Shown in pieces: positions 11,520-35,929 of a stretch of DNA of 40,291 bases (position 1 is the stretch's first letter; each line of letters opens with the position of its first letter). The notes below the pieces were generated by a model that made no database searches, was not told the origin of the DNA, and worked only from the letters and a program-made list of their open reading frames with translations. A program made the translations under genes and the position numbers. The DNA comes from Spirochaetaceae bacterium (GTDB taxonomy: Bacteria > Spirochaetota > Spirochaetia > DSM-27196 > SKKC01), in NCBI GenBank assembly GCA_007694005.1, contig RECN01000106.1:1-40291 (forward strand), written 5' to 3'.

Positions 11520-13694
11520 TCAGACCATGCCAAGGCTGATACGTTTTCTCGCCGAATCGACCTCGAGAACGGTTACCTCCACGTGCATGCCGGTTTGTAC
11601 CACATCCGAGGGATGTGCCACGTAGTCCTTCGACATATGCGAGATGTGCACGAGTCCGTCCCGGTGAACGCCAACATCGACGAAGGCGCCAAAATCCGTC
11701 ACATTCCGTACGACACCGTTGAGCTTCATGCCGGGTTTCAGATCAGTTAGCTCCCGAACGTCATCCCTGAACTCGAGCAGCTCGAAGGCGGGACGCGGGT
11801 CCCTCCCTGGTGCCTTCAGGGAATCAAGTATATCACGGACCGTTTCGGCCATGGTTGCAGAATTTACGTATCGTGACGCCTCGATCTTCGCGACGGCATC
11901 CGCGTTCCCGACGAGGTCTTCTACGGTAAGGTTGATGTCACGGGCCATCTGTTCGACCAGCGGGTAGCGTTCGGGGTGTATTGCCGTCCTGTCAAGCGGA
12001 TTGGGGCCCGCGACGCGGAGAAAGCCTGCCGCCTGCTCGAAGGTCTTTGCACCTATTCCGGACACCTTCAGGAGATCCTGCCGCCTCGTGTAGCCTCCTG
12101 TTTCGCTTCGCTGCTTGACGATCGCCCTGGCGCTGCGGTTGTTGAGGCCTGCGACATAGCGAAGTACGTGCTCACTCGCGGTGTTCAGATCCGCACCGAC
12201 GGCGTTGACGCAGGAGACGACCGTGTCGTCGAGTTTTGCCGAGAGCATCGCAGGATCTACGTCGTGCTGATACTGACCGACGCCTATGGACTTGGGGTCA
12301 ATCTTGACAAGTTCAGCGAGTGGATCCATGAGCCGGCGACCTATCGAAACCGCGCCGCGCACCGTCACGTCCTGGTCGGGAAACTCCTCGCGTGCGGTGC
12401 GGCTCGCCGAGTACACCGATGCGCCCGCCTCGTTCACGCTTATGACCGCTACACCGGTCCCGGTGGTGGTCTTGAGGTCGAGCCCGGCGACGAAGTCCTG
12501 CGCCTCCCGCCCTCCGGTGCCGTTTCCGATCGCCACTACCCGACAGCCGTGCTTTGAAACAAGACTTCGGATTCGCTCGGCGGATGATCCGGTATCGTTC
12601 CGTGGCGGAAGCGGGTAAATGGCTTCGTGATGCAGGAGTGATCCGTGTTCGTCGAGTACCACGAGTTTGCATCCCGTACGGAGTCCCGGATCCAGAGCGA
12701 TCATAGGCACCCCTCCGAGCGGGGGCTCGAGCAGAACTGATCGCAGATTCTGCGCGAATACTTCGGCGGCGCTTTCTTCGGCCCGCTTCTTCAGCGCCGT
12801 TGTCAGCTCGTTTTCGAGGGCAGGTGCGAGCAGACGCTTCCAGGCATCCTCAAGGGCTGCGTCCATGTGTTCCGCCGCCACGATCGTCGTCGCGTCCGGG
12901 GTGCGGCGGGGCTTCCCCGTCGGGAACAGCTGCCGGCGGATACTCGCGTGTGCATCATCGGAGTCTGGAAGCGCGTGAGTTGACAGGATGCCCTCGCGCT
13001 CCCCCCGGAACATTGCGAGAATGCGATGCGATGGAGCCTTTCGTGCCGGCTCCCTGTGGTCAAAATAGTCGGCGTAGATCCGGGCCTCTGCTGATTCCCT
13101 GTCTACACCACGGGCGGGTTTGCTCGCGAGCACGGCGCGCTGTTCGAACAGCTCGCGAAGCCCGGTCCGCACGGAGATGTGCTCGCTGATGTGCTCGGCG
13201 ATAATGTCTCGAGCCCCGGCGAGCTCTTCGTCATTGCATGCGTGGAGGTCGATCGGGGCCTCGTCTGTCTGTGGCAGGTCGAGATCAGCGCCGGTAGCCT
13301 GCACAATGAAGCGCGCGAGTGGCCCGAGTCCCTTCTCGCGGGCAGCATCCGCCCTGGTCTTACGTTTGACCCGGTAGGGCAGGTAGATGTCTTCAAGCTC
13401 CTGTCGTGACGCGGCCGCCTGCAGGCTTCGCTCGAGCTCGTCGGTCAGCAGCTCGCGCTCGGTAAGCGAGGCCAGCATGGCTTCCCGTCGTTTATCGGTC
13501 TCGCGCAGGATCTGTATATGGTCGCGGACGGTTCGTATCTGCTCTTCGTCCATGCCTTGTGTGTGCTCTTTCCGGTAGCGGGAAATGAAGGGGACGCTGG
13601 CGCCTTCGTCGAGCAGACGAATGAGAGCGGCGACCGCCTGCTCCGGTTTCCCGACGAGGCCCGAAATTGTACGGAGGTGCTGTTGCATACTCAT
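11520..13694 (-). CDS. tex: Transcription accessory / RNA-binding protein Tex
   Basis: 724 residues, close to the usual Tex length. In order: the N-terminal Tex helical domain with the invariant PFISRYRKE (about 34-42), the YqgF-like RNase-H fold (IALDPGLRTGCK, about 328-339), helix-hairpin-helix motifs (about 500-560, SARAIVKQR and VSGIGAKTFEQAAGF) and an S1 RNA-binding domain close to the C-terminus (about 648-722, DFGAFVDVGVHRDGLVH). The protein ends directly after S1. Tex is a conserved cytoplasmic nucleic-acid-binding factor linked to transcription and RNA metabolism. The ATG at 13694 overlaps the serpin stop (ATGA), so the two are translationally coupled; an internal ATG at 13688 is an alternative start. 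Confidence 0.95.
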   Translation of the reverse strand: MSMQQHLRTISGLVGKPEQAVAALIRLLDEGASVPFISRYRKEHTQGMDEEQIRTVRDHIQILRETDKRREAMLASLTERELLTDELERSLQAAASRQELEDIYLPYRVKRKTRADAAREKGLGPLARFIVQATGADLDLPQTDEAPIDLHACNDEELAGARDIIAEHISEHISVRTGLRELFEQRAVLASKPARGVDRESAEARIYADYFDHREPARKAPSHRILAMFRGEREGILSTHALPDSDDAHASIRRQLFPTGKPRRTPDATTIVAAEHMDAALEDAWKRLLAPALENELTTALKKRAEESAAEVFAQNLRSVLLEPPLGGVPMIALDPGLRTGCKLVVLDEHGSLLHHEAIYPLPPRNDTGSSAERIRSLVSKHGCRVVAIGNGTGGREAQDFVAGLDLKTTTGTGVAVISVNEAGASVYSASRTAREEFPDQDVTVRGAVSIGRRLMDPLAELVKIDPKSIGVGQYQHDVDPAMLSAKLDDTVVSCVNAVGADLNTASEHVLRYVAGLNNRSARAIVKQRSETGGYTRRQDLLKVSGIGAKTFEQAAGFLRVAGPNPLDRTAIHPERYPLVEQMARDINLTVEDLVGNADAVAKIEASRYVNSATMAETVRDILDSLKAPGRDPRPAFELLEFRDDVRELTDLKPGMKLNGVVRNVTDFGAFVDVGVHRDGLVHISHMSKDYVAHPSDVVQTGMHVEVTVLEVDSARKRISLGMV

Positions 13695-15034
13695 AGTGAC
13701 GGATCACTTACCCGTCCAATAAAGAGAATACTTCCGGTTTCGCGGTCGTAAATCGTGTACACGAAGGGACGGTCAAGCCGGATCTGGACAGGATCGGTCG
13801 GCACCATAGAGCGAACCCCGATGATTACGGCAGTTGCCGCCGCCGCTTCGGTTCCTTCTTCATCAACCTCAATGACACTCCGGTGAATTATATCGGTTGC
13901 GTACAGATCCCTGTTACCGCTGATGCCCGACAGATCGGCCCGATTCGGATCAAACGCGTCCCGCATGCCGAGACCCCGTAGAGCGTTCGGCAGACTCAGG
14001 GACGTTTCGCTCGAGAAACGCGGCATGGTCACCGCGGCCTGTGTAGGCCTGAGTGACTGCAGCATGCGCTCGAAGCTCTCACGATCAAGACCCGCCTGCC
14101 AGCTGTCCCAGGCAGACGGATCCCGGGGCATGAACGCGATGAAGGAGGTCGAGCCGCCGGCGTAGGGCAGCTCGACCGCGATCGTGTCGCCTTCCATGGA
14201 GACCGGCAGCCTCGCTTCAAGCTGCATGAGCGGAACCCGCCGCTCTAGGCCGGCTGCGATAGTGAATCTGCCGTCGCGGGTTGCGCTTTCGCGGAAGGGA
14301 TGCTGCCAGCCGGCGAGGAAGTATACGGCGTTCGCCAGGACCAGCCGTGTCAGCGGAGTAATCGAACCGGGCGGCAGCAGATCCGCGATCTTGCCTTCGG
14401 TCTGACGTTCTATCCATCCGTTAATCCCCTGCCGGGTTCCGTCCGGATCATTTGCGAAGTCGGCGCCCGTGAACTGCGCGCGAAGATGATCCTGCAACTG
14501 CGCCACAAACTGTCCTCGAATCGGGTAGTGGGAATCGAGCCATAGCCCGTTGGCAATGCGAAGCGTGAACGGGTCGCCATCGGTGGACTCATCGTCAAAG
14601 GACTCGTTGTCGCTGTCATCGTCCTCGGTCGGCATTAACAGCGCCTGCAGTTCACCGGCCGCGTGAATCAAGGCGCTTCCCGAAGCCGAGAATCGAAGCG
14701 CGTCTTCAATCTGCGAGGCGGTCGCGCCCTCGGCACCGGCGTAGAGCATGAGAATGGCCGTAGCAATGGAATGCGGGCTCAGGATCAGGTTCTCTTCGGC
14801 CTCCGCCACGGCGATTGCACGGAACAGATCAAAGGCGAAGTCGCGGGTGTCCCCGGCGAGGTCCCGGGCTCCGTACTCGACCTCAAGTCCGCTGGTCCCG
14901 GCCGCCGGGAAGGGTGAATCCGTCTGCGGGAAAGGCGACTCCGCCTGCGGGGCCGCGGTAAGTAATGCCGGGAGCAGGAACAGACACAGACACAGAAGGC
15001 CTGCCGGGCGCGAATAGCGTGTTGCTTGTTTCAT
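13691..15034 (-). CDS. Secreted serpin (serine/cysteine protease inhibitor)
   Basis: 447 residues. An N-terminal signal sequence (charged start, hydrophobic stretch about 11-26, small residues before AAPQ) predicts export. The serpin core follows: NLILSPHSIATAILMLYAGA (82-101), LVLANAVYFLAGW, the hinge and reactive-centre loop beginning EVDEEGTEAAAATAV, and the C-terminal signature FVYTIYDRETGSILFIGRV. The small, Ala-rich hinge marks an inhibitory serpin. Counting 15 residues from the hinge Gly394 places P1-P1' at Arg408-Ser409, so trypsin-like or Arg-specific proteases are the expected targets. Odd points: an acidic low-complexity insert (about 136-154, rich in Asp, Glu and Ser) and a repeated SPFP near the mature N-terminus. 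It lies between a GNAT gene (23 nt gap) and tex (4-base overlap). Confidence 0.93.
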   Translation of the reverse strand: MKQATRYSRPAGLLCLCLFLLPALLTAAPQAESPFPQTDSPFPAAGTSGLEVEYGARDLAGDTRDFAFDLFRAIAVAEAEENLILSPHSIATAILMLYAGAEGATASQIEDALRFSASGSALIHAAGELQALLMPTEDDDSDNESFDDESTDGDPFTLRIANGLWLDSHYPIRGQFVAQLQDHLRAQFTGADFANDPDGTRQGINGWIERQTEGKIADLLPPGSITPLTRLVLANAVYFLAGWQHPFRESATRDGRFTIAAGLERRVPLMQLEARLPVSMEGDTIAVELPYAGGSTSFIAFMPRDPSAWDSWQAGLDRESFERMLQSLRPTQAAVTMPRFSSETSLSLPNALRGLGMRDAFDPNRADLSGISGNRDLYATDIIHRSVIEVDEEGTEAAAATAVIIGVRSMVPTDPVQIRLDRPFVYTIYDRETGSILFIGRVSDPSL

Positions 15035-26181: not shown

Positions 26182-27183
26182 TTAGTAGATAAACGCGTTT
26201 GCAGTGACCGCGAGCCCTGCTCCGGACGCCACGAATACGACCCGGTCGCCGCGACTCACCGCACCCTGTGCAACCGCATCGGCGAAGGCCATTGGCACGC
26301 AGGCGCTGCCGGTGTAGCCGTAGCGGTCCATAATGGTGTGGCTCTTCGTCATCGGGATGCCGAGGATCTCGTTGACCTGCTCAATCACCGAACGGTTGAT
26401 CTGCGTGTAGATGACCTGGTCGATGTCTTTAATCGCAAAACCCGCGCGAGCGGCCACCCGATGTACGACGTCGGGCCAGAGTTTGACGTTGCGGTCACCG
26501 GGCAGTCGCTTCAGAAGCTGCAGCCCGTAGGTTCCCTCGTCGAGCACCTCGTGAGTGATCGGGCGCTTCGTTCCGCCCGCGTATACGCCGACAAAGTCCC
26601 ACTGCGTACCGTCGCTTACGCGCGCGGTGGCAACGTAGCCTGCCTCATCGGCTTTGGTCAGAACGAAGCTCCCCGCGCCGTCTGCAAAAATCGAAAGCCC
26701 GAATGCGTCTCCGTCCCTCGCGTACGCGGGCATGTTGTATACGCCCGTAACCACGGCTGTGTGCACGTCCGGGTCGCTCGCGACGATGCGTGCTGCCGTA
26801 TCGTAGGCGGTCGCGAAGCCGGCGCAGCTTGCGTTGATGTCGAAGCTGCCGCTGTTCGTCTGCCCTCCCTGTAAGCGCCCCTGCATGAGGACGGCCGTCG
26901 GGGGGCTGATATATTCGGGGGTATCGGTGGCAACGATGAACAGATCCACGTCTGACGCGTCAATCTTCGCATCAGCCAGTGCCCGCCGTGCCGCCTGCTC
27001 GGCGAAATCGGCCGTTGTTTCCTCGAGTCCGCGAAGGCGTGCGATGTGCCTTGTTCCTATGCCGATTTTCTCCCGGTACCGGTCCGCGTCGAACTCAATG
27101 CCCGCGAGGGACATGAGTTCCTCGTTTGTTATGGGCTCACCCGGTGCATACAGGCCGGTACCCGCGATTCGTGCGTAGCTCAT
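26182..27183 (-). CDS. FabH-like 3-oxoacyl synthase III homologue lacking the canonical His and Asn
   Basis: 333 residues with the complete KAS III thiolase fold. Cys120 lies in INASCAGF, the FabH active-site motif (E. coli DVAAACAGF). Aligned by eye with E. coli FabH, the HQAN segment reads TQIN, so His244 becomes Thr260, and GNTSAAS reads GYTGSAC, so Asn274 becomes Tyr290. The decarboxylating residues are therefore absent while the acyl-binding Cys is kept. This argues for acyl transfer or non-decarboxylating condensation, as in HMG-CoA-synthase-like or CerJ-like relatives, rather than fatty-acid initiation. The start overlaps the TetR stop (ATGA). The following genes encode a CoA-transferase and a thiolase. 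Confidence 0.85.
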   Translation of the reverse strand: MSYARIAGTGLYAPGEPITNEELMSLAGIEFDADRYREKIGIGTRHIARLRGLEETTADFAEQAARRALADAKIDASDVDLFIVATDTPEYISPPTAVLMQGRLQGGQTNSGSFDINASCAGFATAYDTAARIVASDPDVHTAVVTGVYNMPAYARDGDAFGLSIFADGAGSFVLTKADEAGYVATARVSDGTQWDFVGVYAGGTKRPITHEVLDEGTYGLQLLKRLPGDRNVKLWPDVVHRVAARAGFAIKDIDQVIYTQINRSVIEQVNEILGIPMTKSHTIMDRYGYTGSACVPMAFADAVAQGAVSRGDRVVFVASGAGLAVTANAFIY

Positions 27184-28325
27184 TGGATGTCCTCCATTCT
27201 GATTCCGTGTTTCAAGTGCCCGGCAAGACCGTTGATGAGGTGCTGTGCGCGGTTCGTGTTTCCATCGTAGAGAAGTTCGAGACCGAGATAGTGCGAGAGA
27301 CCCATGAGAAAGTTCGCAGCTATGCCGACATCAAGGTCCCGGAAATCGGCAGCCCGGTGGTGATAGCCTGACTCAAACGCGTCGTAGTACCGGCGGACCG
27401 CATCGGGTACGACAAACTCACCTTCGCGAACAATGTTGTAACAGCTGCGATCGATCGCAGTGATGTAGAACGAAAACAGAAGCATACCCCGCAGCTCACG
27501 GAGTGCCGGATGATCGTCGTGCCTCAGGTTCCTTCGGATAAAGGTCCTGATCTCAGTGCTGACGAGTTCAATGACTGCTTCGGCGAAGGCTTCCTTGCTC
27601 TGGAAGTAGTTGTAGAAGGTTCCGACTCCGACCTGCGCCGCGTCGGTGATCTCATGAATGTTCACGTCGTGGTAGCCCCGTTTGCCGAAGAGAGCCTTTC
27701 CCGCCTGCAGCAGTCGCTGCACGGTGTCACGCGAGAGTTGCATGGCTGGTGGAGTGATATCCCCCTCGAACACCGATTCAGTCTGCAGCGGTGCATCCGG
27801 GAAGAGGCCCCGGGTCATGATCGTCAGGATTTGCCCTGTGTCGAAGTTTGCCCCGTTCCAGACCGAGCGGAAGGCGAGAAAGCGGGTCCCGGCAAGTAGA
27901 AATATGTGTTCGCTCGGACTGATTCTGCGCCCGAGGATCTGTTCGAGGCGGCCGGAGTACAGCTGTGCGAGCCGGCGTTCGTACTCGTAGAAGCGATACT
28001 GACCTTCGCGAAAAATGGACACAAGGTCGCGCTGATGCCCGGTAATATGAAAAACACAGTCGATGAATCGGCGCAGGCCGTCGAGTCCGGTGTATCCGTC
28101 AAGCCCGGCAAGCGCTTCGGAAAGCAGTGTCAGATAGCGTTCTATGAGTTCGCGAAAGATTGCTTCTTTTCCGCGGTAGTAACGGTAAAAGATGCCGTTG
28201 GAGACACCCGCGGTTCGACAGATGTCGGCGACGCTCACCTCGCTGTACCAGCGTTTAGAGAACAGTCGTATAGCCGCGTCGAGGAGCCGGTCGACCGTAG
28301 TAGGTGTGAGAGATGATTCACTCAT
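27180..28325 (-). CDS. Tandem TetR-TetR fusion transcriptional regulator
   Basis: 381 residues, twice the normal TetR size. Two full TetR helix-turn-helix domains are seen: the first (about 8-55) with FSKRWYSEVSVADICRTAG and GIFYRYYRGKEAIF, the second (about 202-250) with FGKRGYHDVNIHEITDAAQV and GTFYNYFQSKEAF. Each is followed by its own helical ligand/dimer domain of about 140 residues. The protein could bind DNA as an internal pseudo-dimer. The start is taken at ATG 28325 (GTG 28328 also possible) because the promoter -10 lies at 28351-28356, so an upstream ATG at 28343 would be at or before the transcription start. It leads the acyl-CoA operon and overlaps the next gene by 4 bases, which suggests autoregulation in response to a product of that operon. 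Confidence 0.88.
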   Translation of the reverse strand: MSESSLTPTTVDRLLDAAIRLFSKRWYSEVSVADICRTAGVSNGIFYRYYRGKEAIFRELIERYLTLLSEALAGLDGYTGLDGLRRFIDCVFHITGHQRDLVSIFREGQYRFYEYERRLAQLYSGRLEQILGRRISPSEHIFLLAGTRFLAFRSVWNGANFDTGQILTIMTRGLFPDAPLQTESVFEGDITPPAMQLSRDTVQRLLQAGKALFGKRGYHDVNIHEITDAAQVGVGTFYNYFQSKEAFAEAVIELVSTEIRTFIRRNLRHDDHPALRELRGMLLFSFYITAIDRSCYNIVREGEFVVPDAVRRYYDAFESGYHHRAADFRDLDVGIAANFLMGLSHYLGLELLYDGNTNRAQHLINGLAGHLKHGIRMEDIQ

Positions 28326-28350
28326 CACTCTTTCTGGTGCCATATTTCGG

Positions 28351-28380
28351 ATTATATGGGGCGTTTCTCGAATTTCGCAA
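28351..28380 (-). promoter_or_regulatory. Sigma70-type promoter of the double-TetR/acyl-CoA operon
   Basis: On the minus strand TTGCGA (28380-28375) and a perfect TATAAT (28356-28351) are 18 bases apart. Transcription should start near 28344, giving a leader of about 18 bases that includes the weak ribosome site GAAAGAG. Confidence 0.7.
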
Positions 28381-28389
28381 GGTTTGTTT

Positions 28390-28403
28390 TGCCTCTGTAG
28401 GCA
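28390..28403. promoter_or_regulatory. Palindrome TGCCT-N4-AGGCA, candidate TetR operator
   Basis: A perfect 5-base inverted repeat with a 4-base centre lies 10 bases upstream of the -35 box of the double-TetR operon. The position suits an autoregulatory operator. Binding by this regulator is inference. Confidence 0.4.
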
Positions 28404-28446
28404 GAATAGGACGTATTTCTGGAGAATACAGCTCAAAATACTCTAA

Positions 28447-28488: not shown

Positions 28489-30405
28489 CTACAGAACGAT
28501 GGGATCGGACGGTTCGCTCTGTCGGCCCCAGATGTCCTCGGCGGTTACGGTGAACTGCATCCCGGTCTTCTGAAAGGCTTTCGGGATACGGATAAGTGCT
28601 GCAGTCGTATCGCCGTCGGCGATGTTCTGTGGTTTGCTTCCCGTCCGCTCGTCAGCCCAGACGCGGTAGGTCAGAAGCGAAGCAGATGTGACCGGTGTCC
28701 AGGCGAGAAGCGTTCTCTGCACGCCACCGTCGCCGCGATACGACTCGAAGCGGAGTTTCCCGGGCACCGCCGGGGGAGGACAGGACTCTTCGGTCCCGAT
28801 GAGCAGGAGTTCAACTGATCCCGGTTCGGTGCGAACCGTGAGTTCCAGAGCGCCTTTCTTGAGATCTTCGTCGCGAGGACGACCCGCGCGCAGGCTCAGC
28901 GCTCCGGCCTGCATCTGCTCAAGCAGCTCCGCATCAGGCTTGACCGGAGCTCCTGCCATGTTCCAGATGTCGTACGCAGACGCGGTCGACGGAGCGAGAC
29001 GGTAGCGGACGCTGCGGTAACGGGCCTTCGGCAGCCCTTCGATTACCACGTTCACCCGTGCACCGGACTTCTCCCGGGTCCGCACGTTGGTCCAGTGGCA
29101 GACCAGGAGCGAGATCATGCCCGATTCCGCATCGCGCGCTGCTATCCAGCGTATCGCGGGAGAGTCCTCGATGGCTCCAAGACCGAGTTTCCTGCTGCCG
29201 AGGCGTCTGCACAGGGCCAGCCCGGTCATTGCCGGTTTGATGACCAGGTCGTGACCGTGCTCGGGTTCGTCACCTGGAGTTACACTCGACCAGCGCTCGG
29301 CAAAGTCGGAATCGTAGCCGTAGAACCAGCCGGTCGCCATGGTGCGCTCGCCCCAGCGGCCGACCCGGGCATTCTGAAGCCCGCGCATCATCGCCGTATC
29401 GGATTTCTCGCGCATGCGTCGGGCCAGTTCCATGCCTATGTAATGAGCCGGGTACTCGGAGTGCGCGCGCCAGGTGTGCGTCGTCGTCGGGCCCGCCTGG
29501 GGATCCGATTCGTTGTTGAACAGCGGGACATTCTTCAGAGAGGGAACGTGGGTGCGTATCCACTCCTGTATCTGCATCTCGCGATCGATCATGGCGTCCG
29601 GGTTCAAATCGGTATCTATGCTGCGTTCGCCCATCGCCTTTTCATGATAGGAGATAAAATCGATGCGCACACCCGATTTGCCGGTCATGATACTCGTACC
29701 GCGCGCGCAGTGCTCGAGCAGGGCCTTGAAGAGCGGCGTCTTCGTCATGGCGGTCGAAGGGCCGCCGAAGCGCAGTCGGGAGCTTACCTGTGCAAGTCCG
29801 TGTGAGCAGGCGTCGTAGTAGGCGAGGAAGGCATCGATGCCGGGACGTCGAATCAGCCCCCAGTGCGAGAGTTCGGGTTCATTCCAGCTCTCAAAAAGCC
29901 ATTCCTGAACCTCCTGTTCACCGTAACGACCGACGAGATGGGCGGCAAACTGTCGTATGAGCTCACTCCAGGCGAGGACTTCCTCGGACTCCGAGAAATC
30001 CCGGAATCTGCCGCCGGGGTTACCCATGAGCGACAGCACCGGCCGAAACCCGCGGGCCACGAGTGCGTCAAGGACGGTATCGAGGGCATCCCAGACGTAG
30101 CGTATGGCGCCTGCGCTTTCGGTAGACGCCGCCCTGGTCATCGCAAGAAGGCCGCGACGGCGCTCTTCATCATTTCCCAGGTTGCGGATTCTGCTTACGT
30201 CGTCGATAACCGGGCGAACGAGGTCCAGACTCCACTGCAGTCGCAAAAACCGTGGTCCGCTTCCCGGCAGAGATGCCAGATGGGTCAGCATCTCCTGCAT
30301 GGCGGGAGCCGCGCAGTGGACCGCGGCACCGGTACCGGCGCTCGCGTACAGGGCAGGAAGGTCGGTTGAAGCTTCATCTGTCGCGTTGAATCGTATTTCT
30401 TTCAT
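28489..30405 (-). CDS. GH39-family glycosidase, alpha-L-iduronidase-like
   Basis: 638 residues. A (beta/alpha)8 catalytic domain (about 20-400) has the acid/base in ESWNEPEL (Glu176) and the nucleophile in FNNESDP (Glu299). The latter, followed by a TWRAHSEYPAHY stretch, resembles the NDEADP...WRAD region of alpha-L-iduronidase more than that of beta-xylosidases. A beta-sandwich and a fibronectin-III-like C-terminal domain (about 545-638) follow, as in iduronidase. No signal peptide, so it probably acts in the cytoplasm on imported fragments. AAGGGG lies 7 nt before ATG 30405. It appears to be transcribed alone from its own promoter. Beta-xylosidase is the main alternative. Confidence 0.8.
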   Translation of the reverse strand: MKEIRFNATDEASTDLPALYASAGTGAAVHCAAPAMQEMLTHLASLPGSGPRFLRLQWSLDLVRPVIDDVSRIRNLGNDEERRRGLLAMTRAASTESAGAIRYVWDALDTVLDALVARGFRPVLSLMGNPGGRFRDFSESEEVLAWSELIRQFAAHLVGRYGEQEVQEWLFESWNEPELSHWGLIRRPGIDAFLAYYDACSHGLAQVSSRLRFGGPSTAMTKTPLFKALLEHCARGTSIMTGKSGVRIDFISYHEKAMGERSIDTDLNPDAMIDREMQIQEWIRTHVPSLKNVPLFNNESDPQAGPTTTHTWRAHSEYPAHYIGMELARRMREKSDTAMMRGLQNARVGRWGERTMATGWFYGYDSDFAERWSSVTPGDEPEHGHDLVIKPAMTGLALCRRLGSRKLGLGAIEDSPAIRWIAARDAESGMISLLVCHWTNVRTREKSGARVNVVIEGLPKARYRSVRYRLAPSTASAYDIWNMAGAPVKPDAELLEQMQAGALSLRAGRPRDEDLKKGALELTVRTEPGSVELLLIGTEESCPPPAVPGKLRFESYRGDGGVQRTLLAWTPVTSASLLTYRVWADERTGSKPQNIADGDTTAALIRIPKAFQKTGMQFTVTAEDIWGRQSEPSDPIVL

Positions 30406-30469: not shown

Positions 30470-31921
30470 TTACGGTGCAAGGAGCACCCAGGTCCACAGG
30501 AGCATGGTCCCGCCGACAGCCCAGCCGAGGTAGCGACGGATATCGCCTGTATGCTGCCGCTGCATGAGCTGAAGACCGCGGGTTCCGGCTGATCGAAGCA
30601 GGTTCATTACCGTGGTCGACCCCGGTAGCGTTACCAGCAGCACCCGAAGGATGGGGCCGTAGAGGATGAAGAACAGCGCCGCACCGACGACGGGCCACAC
30701 GAGCCCGCTCTCAAAGGACTGCTGTGTTATACCTGCACTGTCGGGGAGTTCGGCGAAAAAACTGCGCGGATACAGGCCCATCAGCAGACACAGAAGCGAG
30801 AGCGCAACGGTGATCGTGCGCGTCCCTGTTCGTGCTATGAGACCTTCCCCGACGTCGTGCGCTTGAGGCAGCGGGCCGGGTCTCAGAAATCCGTGCCAGA
30901 GGAACTTCGTAAACGAAAGCGCCGTGCCTATGCCGGCGATCGTGAGAAGATGTATCGCTACGGGTGAGACAAGCGAGTACTGCAGCAGGGACTTGCTGAT
31001 ATAGCCGTTGAAGGGCGGTACACCCGAAATGCTCAAGGCGCCGGCTATTGCCGCGACGGTCAGGACGAAGGATCTGCGGCCCATCCCTCTGGTCGAGTAG
31101 ATGTTGGGTGTGCCGGTCATCGGGACCATGAGCGCGACGACCATAAACAGCAGGCCCTTGTACACGATGTGATTGCCGAGGTGGTACAGGCCGGCGATCT
31201 GAGCCGCTGCCGCCGCGCTGCCGACGCCCGCAATCATGTAGCCGACCTGGCTTATGATGTGAAACGCGAGAAAGGGTCGCAGTCTGTTCTGTCGCAAGGC
31301 ATACAGGACGGCCACCGTAGCCATGATGCCACCGAGAATCTCGAGGCTGATACTTCCCGGAAGCAGACGATACACACCGAACACACCGATCTTCGTCGCC
31401 ACCGCCGAAAGGACGACCGCCGTTCCGGGTCTGACCCTGGCGTAGGTCCCGACCATCCAGAGGTGCAGGGGCATGAGTGCTGCCTTGATCGCAACAGCGA
31501 TGCCTATTAATATCCGACCGGCGGTCACCCCTGCCGCGGGCAGGGCGACAGACCCGGATTCGGCAAAGTGCAGGGCAAACCCGGACAGGAGCAGCGCTGC
31601 TGCGAGCAGCTGCCACGGCAGATATCGCCTCAGAAGGCCGTGGGCATCGGGCTCACAGACGAGTACGATTGCCGCGCCAACGGTAATGAGCTCCCAGATC
31701 ATGAAAAAACTCACCATATCTGCCGTGTACGGCAGCAGGGCACCGGCACCGATATGAACGATCGCCCCGACCCACCAGAGTGCCGACCGCCTCGTGTGCA
31801 GCGCGACAAACACGAGGGCCAGAAGCCCGAACAGGAGGATCGCCTGCGAGACGAATATAGCTCCTGACTCGATATGGGGGGTGTTCACCGTCTGCAGGAC
31901 GGCTGCCGTAATGCCGCTCAT
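30470..31921 (-). CDS. Second MrpD/NuoN-like antiporter subunit
   Basis: 483 residues with about 14 membrane helices, a proton-translocating antiporter-like subunit. It retains a helix-5 glutamate in FFMIWELITVGA (Glu77), a mid-membrane lysine in AVAIKAALMPLHLW (Lys146) and the family segment SISGVPPFNGYISKSLL. Its sequence is clearly diverged from the MrpD gene upstream. The ATG at 31921 forms TAATG with the MrpD stop; a longer frame to 32194 would overlap mrpD heavily and is rejected. It is the last gene of the Mrp cluster and stands where Mbs-type complexes carry a second antiporter subunit (MbsH'). Confidence 0.88.
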   Translation of the reverse strand: MSGITAAVLQTVNTPHIESGAIFVSQAILLFGLLALVFVALHTRRSALWWVGAIVHIGAGALLPYTADMVSFFMIWELITVGAAIVLVCEPDAHGLLRRYLPWQLLAAALLLSGFALHFAESGSVALPAAGVTAGRILIGIAVAIKAALMPLHLWMVGTYARVRPGTAVVLSAVATKIGVFGVYRLLPGSISLEILGGIMATVAVLYALRQNRLRPFLAFHIISQVGYMIAGVGSAAAAAQIAGLYHLGNHIVYKGLLFMVVALMVPMTGTPNIYSTRGMGRRSFVLTVAAIAGALSISGVPPFNGYISKSLLQYSLVSPVAIHLLTIAGIGTALSFTKFLWHGFLRPGPLPQAHDVGEGLIARTGTRTITVALSLLCLLMGLYPRSFFAELPDSAGITQQSFESGLVWPVVGAALFFILYGPILRVLLVTLPGSTTVMNLLRSAGTRGLQLMQRQHTGDIRRYLGWAVGGTMLLWTWVLLAP

Positions 31922-33363
31922 TACACTGCCTCCAGGAGCTGCACGACCGCCTGTACGCAGAACGCGAGCAGCCGGTCGCTGAACACCGCTAGCAGGAGGA
32001 TCAGGGCGGTCCCTGCGAGAGGTACCGGCAGGCGCCTTGACGCCGGTCCCGGAGACGAGAGCTCGGGCAGACCGGGGTGTACCAGCTGTATACCGACACG
32101 AAGGTAGTACACAAGCGCCACAGCGCCTCCGAGCGCAATGAGTACCGCGCCGGTGTGATATCCGGCGCGGGCGGTCTCGAGGACGGCGTACCATTTACTC
32201 GTAAATCCGAGCACGGGGGGTATACCGATCATGCTCATGGCGAGAAGGACGTACAGGGTGACGTGGAGCTTGCGATACTGCTCGGGAAACACGATTGCCT
32301 CAAGGCGGTCTGACCGGTTTCCGGTATGCAGGAATGAACGTCCGAGGAAGAACAGGCTGGATTTCATGATCGCGTGTACGAGGATGTGAAACAGTCCAGC
32401 TGCGATTGCGGTCACCGCTCCGGAGCTGACGGCGAGCAGGCCGTATCCTATGTGCGCGACGCTCGAATAGGCCAGTAGTCGTGAATAGCGTGGCTGTCTG
32501 AGGGCCATGAGATGACCGGTTATAATGCTGAGGCTGGCAATGGTGGTCAGGACCGGGGCGAGGCTCAGCGTGAGCGAGGGAAGCGCCGAGAGCACTCGCA
32601 GCAGCAGTACGAAAAAGGCCGTTGTGGTGACGCCGGACAGAAGTGCGGAAACCGTATAGGAGGCGCCCGAGAGGCTGTCGGCCTTCCACGCATGGAATGG
32701 AACCTGACCGAGCTTGATGAGCAGACCGGCGATGATGGCTGCCGCAGACAGGGCTGGCACCGCCCCCTGAGCGGCATCGAAGCGTGGTGCAAGACTCTGC
32801 ATATCGAGCGTCCCGGTGGTCAGATACAGACCCGCGATTCCCCAGAGCACCAGCAGACCTGCAAACGAGCCCATGACGACGTACTTGAACGCACTCTCAA
32901 AGCCTCCCTTGTCCTGTCGCGAGGCGACAAGCGCGTAGGACGCAATACTCGTGATCTCGATGAACACGTAGGCGTTGAACAGATCCTGGGTGAGCATGAG
33001 ACCGTTCGATCCGGCGTACAGCAGCATGAGCAGGGTTCGAAAGTGCTGCGCGCCGGATGTCTCGTCATGAGACAGGATTGCTTGAGCCACGATGAGTGAG
33101 GTCACCAGCATTGCCGCTACAGCGAGCAGATCAAACTGCAGGCCTATACCGAGATCAGGCTGCCACCCTCCCGCGGCGGTCACGACAGGAGCGTGCATCG
33201 CGTCGCGTATGGAAAACGAAAGCAGCGTCACGACGACAAGGATGACGGCCAGCGCAGGCAGTGCGGTGCCGCGTCCTGAGCGGGTCGTAAAATAGAGCAG
33301 GGGGACACCGGCCAGAGGTATCACGATCAGAAGAACCGGGAGTTCCGTGAGCAGACTGTTCAT
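31921..33363 (-). CDS. mrpD: Na+/H+ antiporter subunit MrpD
   Basis: 480 residues, about 14 helices, NuoN/MrpD type. Key charged residues are in place: Glu136 in FNAYVFIEITSIASY and Lys217/Lys227 in LLIKLGQVPFHAWKADS, the equivalents of residues essential in Bacillus MrpD (Glu137 and Lys219 as I recall). AIMKSSLFFLGR carries the third conserved lysine. It forms one of the ion-conducting subunits of the Mrp complex in the inner membrane. The start overlaps the mrpC stop (ATGA). Confidence 0.93.
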   Translation of the reverse strand: MNSLLTELPVLLIVIPLAGVPLLYFTTRSGRGTALPALAVILVVVTLLSFSIRDAMHAPVVTAAGGWQPDLGIGLQFDLLAVAAMLVTSLIVAQAILSHDETSGAQHFRTLLMLLYAGSNGLMLTQDLFNAYVFIEITSIASYALVASRQDKGGFESAFKYVVMGSFAGLLVLWGIAGLYLTTGTLDMQSLAPRFDAAQGAVPALSAAAIIAGLLIKLGQVPFHAWKADSLSGASYTVSALLSGVTTTAFFVLLLRVLSALPSLTLSLAPVLTTIASLSIITGHLMALRQPRYSRLLAYSSVAHIGYGLLAVSSGAVTAIAAGLFHILVHAIMKSSLFFLGRSFLHTGNRSDRLEAIVFPEQYRKLHVTLYVLLAMSMIGIPPVLGFTSKWYAVLETARAGYHTGAVLIALGGAVALVYYLRVGIQLVHPGLPELSSPGPASRRLPVPLAGTALILLLAVFSDRLLAFCVQAVVQLLEAV

Positions 33364-33701
33364 CCGCGCCAGTCCTTGAGTTTGTCCACGAGAACCGTTC
33401 CATGACTGCGGTGAACGCGTACTATGAGCGTGAGCATAAGGGCGGTGAGACTGGCTCCGATGACGATTGCCGTGAGGGCGAGTGCGTGCGGAAGCGGAAG
33501 CACATGTACGTCTGTCGCCGCCCTGAGAATAGGTGAGCGGGCGTCCGGTCTGTAGGCTATGAGAACGAGGCCGAGCAGTGCTGCTGCTTCAAGAATGTTG
33601 AAACACAGGACCATGCGAATCATATGTGTACGCCTGAGCAGGCCGTAGATTCCGATTCCCGTGAGCACAATGCACGTGATGCCGATAGTAAGTACAATCA
33701 T
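33360..33701 (-). CDS. mrpC: Na+/H+ antiporter subunit MrpC (NuoK-like)
   Basis: 113 residues with three membrane helices, homologous to NuoK. The signature stretch CFNILEAAALLGLVLI (about 33-48) carries the conserved Glu, and DVHVLPLPHALALTAIVIG (about 64-82) is the typical third-helix motif PxPxALxLTAIVI of MrpC/MnhC. It ends inside the start of mrpD. ATG 33701 lies 6 nt after the stop of the MrpB fusion gene. Confidence 0.93.
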   Translation of the reverse strand: MIVLTIGITCIVLTGIGIYGLLRRTHMIRMVLCFNILEAAALLGLVLIAYRPDARSPILRAATDVHVLPLPHALALTAIVIGASLTALMLTLIVRVHRSHGTVLVDKLKDWRG

Positions 33702-33707
33702 TCCGGG

Positions 33708-34400
33708 TCACTCCAGAAAAAGGCTCATGACGATGATGCCGAGGCCGACGCCGACCTTCACGCCACTGATGAGATTGAGCATGGGTATGGTGCCGGCACT
33801 CAGCAGCTCACCCGGCGTACCGAGTGGTATGCCGGTTTGTGCGTTTGCGAGAAAGGATCCCGCCAGGCCAAGTCCGAGTAATCCCACGCCGATGAACGCC
33901 GTCATCGCGGTGTTCTCAATGAGTTTGTTCGCCGCAGGTGCGATGACGTAACTCTGCTGTCCACCGACCGAATAGACGACCGCGTAAAAAACCGTGCTCG
34001 TTGCGACAATAACACCGCCGGTGAACCCGCCGCCCGGTGATACATGTCCGTGGGCCATGACCGCGATACCGAGTATGGTAATGAAGGGCAGGAGCAGTAC
34101 GACCCCGTAGAGGACGATGCTCGAAAGTCGCACTGCGAGCATGGAGGCTTTTGCCCGGGGCGTCAGAAATGCGACGACCGTCGCGGTCATGAGTATGACC
34201 GTCGCTTCACCGAGGGTGTCGAGCGCCCGGTAGTCGAACAGGATGGCCGATACGGCATTGACGGCTCCGGTATCGCGAAGCGTCAGCGGCGCGTGATTCA
34301 GCGGGTCTGCGGTTCGTGGTGCCACGGCGAGCTCGAACGCGATAATAACCCCGAAGACGATGATGCCGCTCACCAGCACGGCGGCGCTGATGCGGCTCAT
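33708..34400 (-). CDS. MbhE-MrpB fusion subunit of the Mrp antiporter
   Basis: 230 residues containing two modules that are usually separate. Residues 1-82 match MbhE / the last part of MrpA: VNAVSAILFDYRALDTLGEA followed by a helix. Residues about 90-230 are MrpB: LLLPFITILGIAVMAHGHVS with SPGGGFTGGVI, a MrpB hallmark, and a C-terminal NLISGVKVGVGLGIIV. The fusion therefore supplies part of the missing MrpA and the MrpB subunit in one chain. The start overlaps the preceding gene (ATGA). Confidence 0.88.
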   Translation of the reverse strand: MSRISAAVLVSGIIVFGVIIAFELAVAPRTADPLNHAPLTLRDTGAVNAVSAILFDYRALDTLGEATVILMTATVVAFLTPRAKASMLAVRLSSIVLYGVVLLLPFITILGIAVMAHGHVSPGGGFTGGVIVATSTVFYAVVYSVGGQQSYVIAPAANKLIENTAMTAFIGVGLLGLGLAGSFLANAQTGIPLGTPGELLSAGTIPMLNLISGVKVGVGLGIIVMSLFLE

Positions 34401-34648
34401 CGGTGGCCCCCGTCTGTGTCACGGGTCTTGTCCAGCGCGATGACGAAAAAGGCCGTGGTCAGACCGGCACCGATGACCGCCTCGGTCATCGCGACGTCGG
34501 GGGCCTTAAGAATCACGAACAGGACCGTGAGTATGATGCTGAACACCCCCATGGCAATGATCGCCGCAAACACGGATGACGAGTTCACGGTGTAGAGCGA
34601 TACCCCGACGAGAAAGAGGCAGAGCAGAACAACGGCCGCTTCAAGCAT
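34397..34648 (-). CDS. MbhD-like (DUF4040) subunit, free-standing part of MrpA
   Basis: 83 residues with about three membrane helices and the hallmark LKAPDVAMTEAVIGAGLTT (about 47-65), found in MbhD of archaeal hydrogenases and in the C-terminal part of long bacterial MrpA. Here it is a separate small protein. The start ATG 34648, inside the end of mrpG, is chosen because GGGAGGTGG lies just before it; a longer upstream frame to 34771 is out-of-frame antisense-like sequence within mrpG and lacks a ribosome site. Confidence 0.88.
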   Translation of the reverse strand: MLEAAVVLLCLFLVGVSLYTVNSSSVFAAIIAMGVFSIILTVLFVILKAPDVAMTEAVIGAGLTTAFFVIALDKTRDTDGGHR

Positions 34649-35015
34649 TTCCACCTCCCTCGGACTTCCTCGTCCGTTCCCCGACGACGAATCCTGCTTC
34701 GATTGCCGTCGCGTACTCGTCTTCGTCGAGGCTGTCCAGGTCGATCGATGCCTGATGCGACGCGCGGGCAAGCGCGTGGGTTCCGAGCGTGCTCGTTGCG
34801 AGAAGAAAAACCGTAATGACGACGAGCCGTATGATGTCTGCGGTCGAGTCAGCGTTCAGCATGACGAACAGGATTACCGATACCGCTCCGCCGGTCAGGG
34901 ATTTTCCCGCGCTGTGCAATCGGGCGTAGACGGTCTCGAAGCGGAACATACCGACCGCCGTCGCGATAAAGAAGAATCCCGCGGCTGCCAGACTCAAAAT
35001 CGAAAATACATGCAT
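34641..35015 (-). CDS. mrpG: Na+/H+ antiporter subunit MrpG
   Basis: 124 residues with three membrane helices and the MrpG signature GMFRFETVYARLHSAGKS (about 22-39), followed by IIRLVVITVFLLATSTLGTHALARA. The C-terminal 40 residues are acidic and charged, longer than in many MrpG proteins. The ribosome site GGAGG overlaps the mrpF stop. It is an accessory, structural subunit of the Mrp complex. Confidence 0.93.
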   Translation of the reverse strand: MHVFSILSLAAAGFFFIATAVGMFRFETVYARLHSAGKSLTGGAVSVILFVMLNADSTADIIRLVVITVFLLATSTLGTHALARASHQASIDLDSLDEDEYATAIEAGFVVGERTRKSEGGGNA

Positions 35016-35022
35016 GCGCCTG

Positions 35023-35295
35023 CTACCTCCGCCCCAGATATTTTGCGTAGATGATCAGGTCGACAAACTGAAGTACCGCATACACCAGCGCGACATCGAT
35101 CATAACCGGTTCATTCAGCCGGACCGAAAGAAGCAGAATACAGCTGAACAACATGGTACCCACTACCGACCCTGCGACGATGCGATCGGCCTGTGTCGGG
35201 CCTTTGAGAATGCGGACGAAGACCACCAGCGCGCCCAGCACAATGAGGAGAATGGCGGCATCGAGAAGAAGGGTCGTCGTCGCAGTAAGGTCCAT
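35023..35295 (-). CDS. mrpF: Na+/H+ antiporter subunit MrpF
   Basis: 90 residues, three membrane helices, with GPTQADRIVAGS (about 31-42) and DVALVYAVLQFVDLI (about 66-80), both standard MrpF motifs. The ATG at 35295 overlaps the mrpE stop by one base (TGATG); a GTG one codon upstream is possible. It is a structural subunit; MrpF proteins are also linked to bile-salt or Na+ efflux in some species. Confidence 0.92.
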   Translation of the reverse strand: MDLTATTTLLLDAAILLIVLGALVVFVRILKGPTQADRIVAGSVVGTMLFSCILLLSVRLNEPVMIDVALVYAVLQFVDLIIYAKYLGRR

Positions 35296-35816
35296 CACGT
35301 CGCCTGCTCCCGGAGCGCCGCTTTCAGAGGGGCTTCGAGCCGCTCGATGCCTTTCCGCACCTCTTCGTTTGTGGTCCCCTTTTGTGCGAGGACGTGCACG
35401 TACAGACGCCGGTCATCCCGGTCGACGACGATGGTTCCCGGGGTAAGGGTCACCGCGCAGGCGAGCAGGACGATCGCAAGACGATCGTGAATCTCCGGCT
35501 CGTAGGTGATGATACGCGAGTGAACTGATACACCGGGGCGAAACGCGAGGACTGCGATGCGGACGCTCGCGAGGACCATGGATGTTCCGACGATCAGAAG
35601 GAATTTCGGCAGACGATGAAGCGACGCAAACAGTCTGCTGGTGGCTACGATGCGGTAGGTGTGCCGAAACAGGATGACCGGCACCAGGGTGACCGCAAGA
35701 CCCAGGAGGACGGTGTCGAGACGGGCGTTGCCGGCGAAGATGGTCCACACGCTCATGAGTGCTACGTGGAATAGAATGTGCTGAGCGCGCAGGCCCCGAA
35801 GCCGTCCGGTGTGCAT
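35295..35816 (-). CDS. mrpE: Na+/H+ antiporter subunit MrpE
   Basis: About 173 residues: two or three N-terminal helices, then a cytoplasmic domain with the MrpE hallmark ITYEPEI...LTPGTIVVD (about 101-131) and a C-terminal LYVHVL strand. ATG 35816 is used; a GTG at 35834 is an alternative. No clear ribosome site is seen for either, and TATCTT preceded by TGC (35831-35826) may be an extended -10 for the whole cluster. It is the first gene of the eight-gene Mrp operon, which overlaps or abuts throughout. Confidence 0.9.
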   Translation of the reverse strand: MHTGRLRGLRAQHILFHVALMSVWTIFAGNARLDTVLLGLAVTLVPVILFRHTYRIVATSRLFASLHRLPKFLLIVGTSMVLASVRIAVLAFRPGVSVHSRIITYEPEIHDRLAIVLLACAVTLTPGTIVVDRDDRRLYVHVLAQKGTTNEEVRKGIERLEAPLKAALREQAT

Positions 35817-35929
35817 GGGTGTTGAAGATAGCACATCAGAACGGGTCGGTCATGGGCCTGTGGATAGGTGGTCCGGCAATCGTGTACCATAGGGAGTCAA
35901 ACAACTCACGTATCGAAGAGGAGCAGAAC

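What the first reader, a model, noticed from the sequence alone, without database searches (positions are those of the whole stretch)
30470..35816. Mrp antiporter cluster without full-length MrpA, in the gene order of Mbh/Mbs membrane arms
Read on the minus strand, the order is MrpE, MrpF, MrpG, MbhD-like, MbhE-MrpB fusion, MrpC, MrpD, second MrpD-like. Classical Mrp operons begin with a large MrpA whose C-terminus holds the MbhD and MbhE parts. Here MrpA's channel half is absent and those parts are separate, followed by two D-type channels. This is the order of archaeal mbh/mbs genes A-H plus H', but without any hydrogenase-like or redox subunit in the window. It may be a stand-alone two-channel antiporter close to the proposed ancestral form.
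Basis: partly seen in the sequence, partly recalled or inferred. Interest (0 to 1): 0.62.

Follow-up and report, generated by a model that had tools for sequence, protein, structure and literature searches.

The report
Two-channel Mrp sodium/proton antiporter operon
This is an eight-gene operon for a membrane machine that most likely swaps sodium ions for protons; it lacks the usual large first subunit and uses a second, differently descended channel instead, a layout already known and widespread in bacteria and archaea.

Summary
In detail: on the minus strand, 35816 to 30470 encodes MrpE, F, G, MbhD, a fused MbhE-MrpB, MrpC, an MrpD-type channel (D1) and a second channel (D2), tightly packed, with no MrpA. 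The genome has no MrpA above the family cut-off, no complex I or group-4 hydrogenase subunits, and three MrpA-less Mrp clusters. The "unusual, near-ancestral" reading is weaker. Published classifications call MrpA-less clusters with one or more mrpD "Group 3"; about 30 complete stand-alone clusters of this type, most with three D channels, turned up in about ten phyla. D2 is not MrpA (AU p 1.7e-9) nor MbsH'. It belongs to a separate, very common family (100/99 support). Its model extends past the MrpD-type fold into a NuoL/MrpA-like tail (low confidence there), so D2 probably fills MrpA's channel position by non-orthologous replacement. It is a shortened, fast-evolving member; nothing marks it as ancestral. 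Two details seem fresh: this family's TM7 lysine is kept in all eight two-channel clusters but is asparagine in most larger ones, and the lateral helix looks shorter in the two-channel form. Antiport was not tested.

The parts
35295..35816 (-). mrpE (MNHE); the ORF is also open from GTG at 35834
   Evidence: Pfam PF01899 E 1.2e-28
35023..35298 (-). mrpF; overlaps mrpE by 4 bases
   Evidence: Pfam PF04066 E 1.7e-13; 'PTQADRIVAGSV' keeps the DR motif
34641..35015 (-). mrpG
   Evidence: Pfam PF03334 E 7.8e-18
34397..34648 (-). mbhD-like (DUF4040), separate small subunit; start taken at MLEAAVV; overlaps mrpG by 8 bases
   Evidence: Pfam PF13244 E 5.8e-19; best solved match MbsD 6u8y_D E 4.7e-10, with the Glu of 'AMTEAVIG' aligned to that of MbhD
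33708..34400 (-). mbhE-mrpB fusion (MbsE-like)
   Evidence: MnhB E 6.7e-18 and MbhE E 8.8e-6; MbsE 6u8y_E E 1.7e-28 over residues 12-227; keeps 'YRALDTLGE'
33360..33701 (-). mrpC
   Evidence: Pfam PF00420 E 2e-23; MbsG/MbhG E 2e-12
31921..33363 (-). D1: MrpD/MbhH/MbsH/NuoN-type channel, 480 aa; keeps TM5 Glu, TM7 Lys, TM12 Lys; TM8 Lys is Thr
   Evidence: PF00361 E 1.9e-50; MbhH E 5e-45, MbsH E 2.5e-43; tree; residues
30470..31921 (-). D2: second antiporter-like channel, 483 aa from ATG at 31921 (the longer ORF to 32194 overlaps D1); lacks TM1-2; TM15, short amphipathic helix and TM16 at the C-terminus
   Evidence: PF00361 E 3.2e-22; trees; AF2 model pLDDT 84.6; structural comparison; residues E77, K146, K177, K310

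Best explanation
A stand-alone Group 3-type Mrp antiporter that exchanges Na+ (or K+) for H+, driven by the proton or sodium gradient. MrpE, F, G and B with MbhD, MbhE and MrpC form the cation path and the Na+/H+ coupling site (inferred by homology; the MbhD Glu and the MbhE Asp/Glu are present). D1 sits next to that module as MrpD/MbhH does and carries the adjacent H+ path (inferred). D2 takes the outer channel position that the N-terminal half of MrpA fills in Group 1/2 Mrp and MbsH' fills in MBS, with its C-terminal lateral helix clamping D1 (inferred from the model and the tree). D2 is shown not to group with MrpA: it is a non-orthologous replacement from a separate channel family. The cell has several NQR/RnfD-type subunits, so the likely job is pH and Na+ homeostasis and conversion between Na+ and H+ gradients in a saline, perhaps alkaline, habitat (inferred).
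For: Subunit set and order. No MrpA and no redox subunits found in the genome. Same set in many stand-alone clusters across phyla and in haloarchaea. D2 family monophyletic at 100/99 and apart from MrpA, NuoL and MbsH'; D2 with MrpA rejected, p-AU 1.7e-9. D2 keeps TM5 Glu, TM7 Lys, TM8 Lys, TM12 Lys. Its model aligns to NuoL/MrpA to residue about 460 but to MrpD/NuoM only to about 394. Four NQR2/RnfD matches in the genome. Published function for relatives: the P. furiosus Group 3 Mrp uses Na+ for pH response (PMC8415708); the cyanobacterial two-mrpD cluster gives Na+/H+ antiport in E. coli (reported in the review PMC5703873).
Against: No transport data for this complex or any close relative. 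D1 has Thr at the TM8 Lys position, D2 lacks TM1-2, and MrpF has Ser where A. flavithermus Mrp needs Asp35 (position judged by motif spacing only; it varies in relatives). The D2 C-terminal tail is modelled at pLDDT about 50-70, and TM16 (461-481) is not covered by the structural alignments. D2 has a long branch in the trees.
Confidence: 0.8

Rival explanations
1. The operon is the membrane arm of a redox-driven pump (MBH/MBS-like) whose hydrogenase-like arm is encoded elsewhere.
For: Gene order and the MbhE-MrpB fusion are those of mbs; MbsD, MbsE and MbsG are the best solved matches.
Against: No 49 kDa/large subunit, PSST or NuoH-type protein in the genome; D2 is not in the MbsH' lineage; most relatives with complete clusters have no redox genes beside them.
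Confidence: 0.04
2. D2 is a shortened MrpA whose C-terminal MbhD/MbhE parts split off, so this is a Group 1 Mrp with a broken mrpA.
For: The D2 model extends into a NuoL/MrpA-like TM15 and helix; the MbhD and MbhE parts are present as separate genes.
Against: Tree and AU test reject D2 with MrpA; D2 lies at the far end of the operon, not beside mbhD; the best profile is PRK12668 subunit D.
Confidence: 0.05
3. A two-channel form close to the ancestor of Mrp, MBH and complex I.
For: MrpA is absent and MbhD/MbhE are not part of a channel protein; D2 keeps the TM7 Lys that most of its family has lost; two-D clusters branch with the Lys-bearing side of the family tree (support 89/76).
Against: Window D2 is shortened and fast evolving; three-D clusters are far more common and include archaea; the tree cannot be rooted to tell loss from gain; L084, also two-D, is nested among three-D relatives and so looks derived.
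Confidence: 0.1
4. D2 works mainly as a structural or coupling subunit, not as a second proton channel.
For: It has lost TM1-2; most relatives have Asn instead of the TM7 Lys.
Against: Window D2 keeps all four channel charges.
Confidence: 0.2

Closest known systems
Haloarchaeal Group 3-type Mrp (Haloarcula marina, Haloterrigena salifodinae plasmids)
   Same: E-F-G-DUF4040-MnhB-C-D..D order, no MrpA, last gene in the same family as D2
   Different: Three D channels instead of two; the last has Asn at TM7; DUF4040 gene longer
Stand-alone Mrp of Pyrococcus furiosus, mrpEFGBB'CD (PMC8415708)
   Same: Group 3, no MrpA, no redox arm, same module order
   Different: One D channel; MbhD and MbhE fused there, MbhE and MrpB fused here
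Cyanobacterial Group 3 Mrp, mrpCD1D2EFGAB (Aphanothece; in PMC5703873)
   Same: Two mrpD genes; reported Na+/H+ antiport in E. coli
   Different: Gene order; its D subunits were not compared here
NPL-UPA2 Unc8 MrpEFGBBBCD + MrpDD (PMC6305446; L079) and Ca. Nitrospira alkalitolerans (PMC7784846)
   Same: Mrp clusters with extra D-type genes in alkaline habitats
   Different: More D genes; described only from genomes
MBS of P. furiosus (PDB 6U8Y, PMC7684303)
   Same: Order A-H plus a second channel, MbsE-type fusion, outer channel with TM15-helix-TM16
   Different: Carries the J/K/L/M/N redox arm; MbsH' is not in the D2 family
Sinorhizobium meliloti pSymA nuo2 operon
   Same: Encodes a D2-family subunit among its channels
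   Different: It is a complex I; TM7 is Asn

Membership tests
Group 3 Mrp antiporter | No mrpA; only mrpD-type channels, sometimes several (PMC8415708) | tested here: met
   TIGR00940 far below cut-off in the genome; two D genes; D2 not MrpA
Group 3 Mrp antiporter | E, F, G, B, C present, with MbhD/MbhE parts separate from a channel | tested here: met
Group 3 Mrp antiporter | Na+(K+)/H+ antiport activity | not testable with these tools
   Needs expression and assay
Group 1/2 Mrp | Full-length MrpA with channel and C-terminal parts in one chain | tested here: not met
   none above cut-off in 40 relatives either
MBH/MBS | Hydrogenase-like arm (L, J, M subunits) | tested here: not met
   PF00346, PF01058, PF00146 absent; assembly 96% complete
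MBH/MBS | Second channel orthologous to MbsH' | tested here: not met
   MbsH' falls outside the D2 family in both trees
MrpA (for D2) | Groups with MrpA N-terminal halves | tested here: not met
   AU p 1.7e-9
MrpA/NuoL-type architecture (for D2) | TM15, lateral helix, TM16 after the 14-TM core | tested here: inconclusive
   Helices 400-420, 435-456, 461-481 in the model; NuoL alignment reaches 460; pLDDT about 50-70 from residue 421 on
PRK12668 Na+/H+ antiporter subunit D (NF009310) | Score above the curated cut-off (564 bits) | tested here: not met
   231 bits; best of all NCBIfam models, so a relative, not a member by that rule

The most novel reading that the evidence does not exclude
MrpA-less antiporters form a natural series with one, two, three or four channel subunits. 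The outer channel is a non-orthologous stand-in for MrpA whose TM7 proton-path lysine and lateral-helix length change with the number of partner channels, so that each added channel changes the H+/Na+ ratio.
Probability: 0.2. Interest if true: 0.55.

Novelty: new member of a known kind. Interest (0 to 1): 0.28.

Why it matters
As a gene cluster it is ordinary. It is useful because it suggests that the outer channel position of Mrp can be filled by a different lineage than MrpA, and because related clusters with one to four channels form a comparison set for asking how many proton channels an Mrp or complex I arm needs and what each adds to the ion ratio.

Tried and rejected
Hydrogenase or complex I partner elsewhere: rejected by three family searches. 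D2 as MrpA: rejected by tree and AU test. D2 as MbsH': not supported. Is the TM7 Lys/Asn split tied to channel number? 8 of 8 two-D clusters have Lys against 4 of 26 with three or more, but the tree needs only two changes and gives only three independent pairs, so no significance. Helix length against channel number: residues after the TM12 Lys are 169-179 in five two-D clusters but 199-234 in three others (L111, L084, G130), mostly 195-243 in three-D ones (L112 175, L089 304), and 321 in one four-D Bacillota cluster; suggestive, with exceptions. A first tree had two wrong-frame rows (L107, L135) and was redone. Promoter and terminator scan: no more than shuffles. The Fukaya 2009 paper is not held, so that result is cited through a review.

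Full report
Observation. The fusion aligns with MbsE of the solved MBS complex over residues 12-227 (E 1.7e-28), and MrpC and MbhD also match MBS/MBH subunits best. Neighbouring genes overlap by 1 to 8 bases or are 6-7 bases apart. The last ORF is listed from 32194, but that start lies inside D1; the ATG at 31921, in a TGATG overlap with the D1 stop, gives 483 residues.

Genome context. The window is a whole contig (C195) of a 3.9 Mb, 204-contig, 96%-complete genome. It has only three proteins with the antiporter core: D1, D2 and one on C114. The C114 cluster is E-F-G-DUF4040-E-B-C-D with one D. A third cluster at the end of C93 has E-F-G-MbhD-MbhE and is cut by the contig end. The MrpA profile hits only D and MbhD genes, far below its cut-off, and stays below it in 40 relatives. 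Complex I/hydrogenase markers are absent. Four NQR2/RnfD-type matches exist. One genome of the same order, G203, has a single contig of 3,782,798 bases, exactly the published length of Salinispira pacifica (PMC4511686), so the host is very probably a spirochaete; [quoted passage not shown]

How common it is. Among 296 genomes sampled from the phylum, 39 have a match to D2 at E 1e-20 or better, which includes other D-type subunits. Fetched regions show E-F-G-MbhD-MbhE/B-C followed by one, two or three D genes, and no MrpA was recognised. Of the 79 loci kept, about 30 contain a complete stand-alone cluster without MrpA or redox genes, from roughly ten phyla of bacteria and archaea; six place the same channel type in a complex I operon. 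The same E-F-G-D-(E)B-C-D order with two Ds was seen in G130, G293 and G256 (the second channel of G256 is of another lineage) and in L107, L111 and L084; L120 is close to it. Haloarchaeal plasmids carry the same order with three Ds. The scheme is the published Group 3 Mrp (PMC8415708, PMC5703873), and clusters with several D genes have been noted in NPL-UPA2 Unc8 (PMC6305446) and Ca. Nitrospira alkalitolerans (PMC7784846).

What D2 is. In a tree of 72 antiporter-like subunits D2 groups with G130 and G293 (100/99), and that set with the last D of three-D clusters and a Sinorhizobium nuo2 subunit (100/99), apart from MrpA, NuoL and MbsH'. A second tree with 56 rows repeats this: 43 D2-family rows at 100/99, with D2 in a nine-row clade from Spirochaetota, Planctomycetota and a PVC-group genome (99/95), several of them named from the CSSed and T3Sed sediment series. 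Forcing D2 with MrpA costs 85 log units (p-AU 1.7e-9). D2 has a long branch, so its exact place inside the clade is uncertain. D1 groups near MbsH and NuoN.

Structure. The AlphaFold model of D2 (pLDDT 84.6) shows TM3-TM14, no TM1-2, and then helices 400-420, 435-456 and 461-481. Against solved structures it aligns with NuoL/ND5 and MrpA to residue about 460 and with MrpD/NuoM to about 394, so it has the extra NuoL/MrpA-type element. The tail is low confidence and the last helix is outside those alignments. A D3 from a three-D cluster (L134) has helix 484-524 at the same place, 41 residues against 22, also at moderate confidence. In MBH, MBS and complex I the length of this helix follows the number of channels (PMC7684303). 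Across the family the length trend has clear exceptions.

Residues. D2 keeps the TM5 Glu, TM7 Lys, TM8 Lys and TM12 Lys; D1 keeps three of them and has Thr at TM8. In the D2 family TM7 is Asn in 28 of 43 rows and Lys in 15. All eight two-channel clusters have Lys; 22 of 26 with three or more have Asn. The tree explains this with two changes, so it is an observation, not a tested correlation. MbhD keeps the Glu equivalent to MrpA E706, and MbhE keeps the YR-LDTLGE motif with the Asp and Glu inferred to match D792 and E796.

Mechanism. Shown: gene content, absence of MrpA and redox subunits in the assembly, D2 lineage, conserved charges. Inferred: cation path through E/F/G/B, MbhD, MbhE and C; proton paths in D1 and D2; D2 in the outer position; Na+(K+)/H+ exchange for pH and Na+ balance. 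The direction may vary, as proposed for P. furiosus Mrp (PMC8415708).

Verdict. A real, well-read operon of a known kind. The claim that it is rare or near-ancestral is not supported. The likely replacement of MrpA's channel by a separate lineage, and the changes seen with channel number, are the parts worth following.

Noticed in passing
L008:3771-8127 (G000 contig C114): Second MrpA-less Mrp cluster with one D channel; its DUF4040 protein carries an extra C-terminal stretch of about 115 residues without a Pfam match.
   Followed up: partly
L007:1-1950 (G000 contig C93): Third Mrp cluster cut by the contig end; its MbhD has Gln where the key Glu is expected ('AMTQAVVG'). An RnfD/NqrB gene lies about 11 kb away on the same contig.
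   Followed up: partly
D2 family, e.g. L134:8695-10470, L069:8668-10416, L070:8716-10476: The TM7 lysine of the antiporter core is asparagine in most members, including one in a Sinorhizobium complex I operon.
   Followed up: partly
L089:8755-10785 and other Bacillota loci: D2-family proteins with a very long C-terminal region; in L089 it is made of repeated 'DALDDAYEKSG...AKKLAGKAAEF' units, as if the lateral helix had grown by duplication.
   Followed up: no
L112:3372-6520 and L153:832-3928: Two tandem D2-type genes after D1 in Spirochaetota metagenome genomes.
   Followed up: no
window 27180-28436 (-): Fused regulator with two TetR DNA-binding domains in one chain.
   Followed up: no
window 13691-15034 (-): A serpin (E 5e-101), less usual in a bacterial genome.
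   Followed up: no
window 28489-30405 (-): Glycoside hydrolase family 39 gene starting 64 bases downstream of D2 on the same strand.
   Followed up: no
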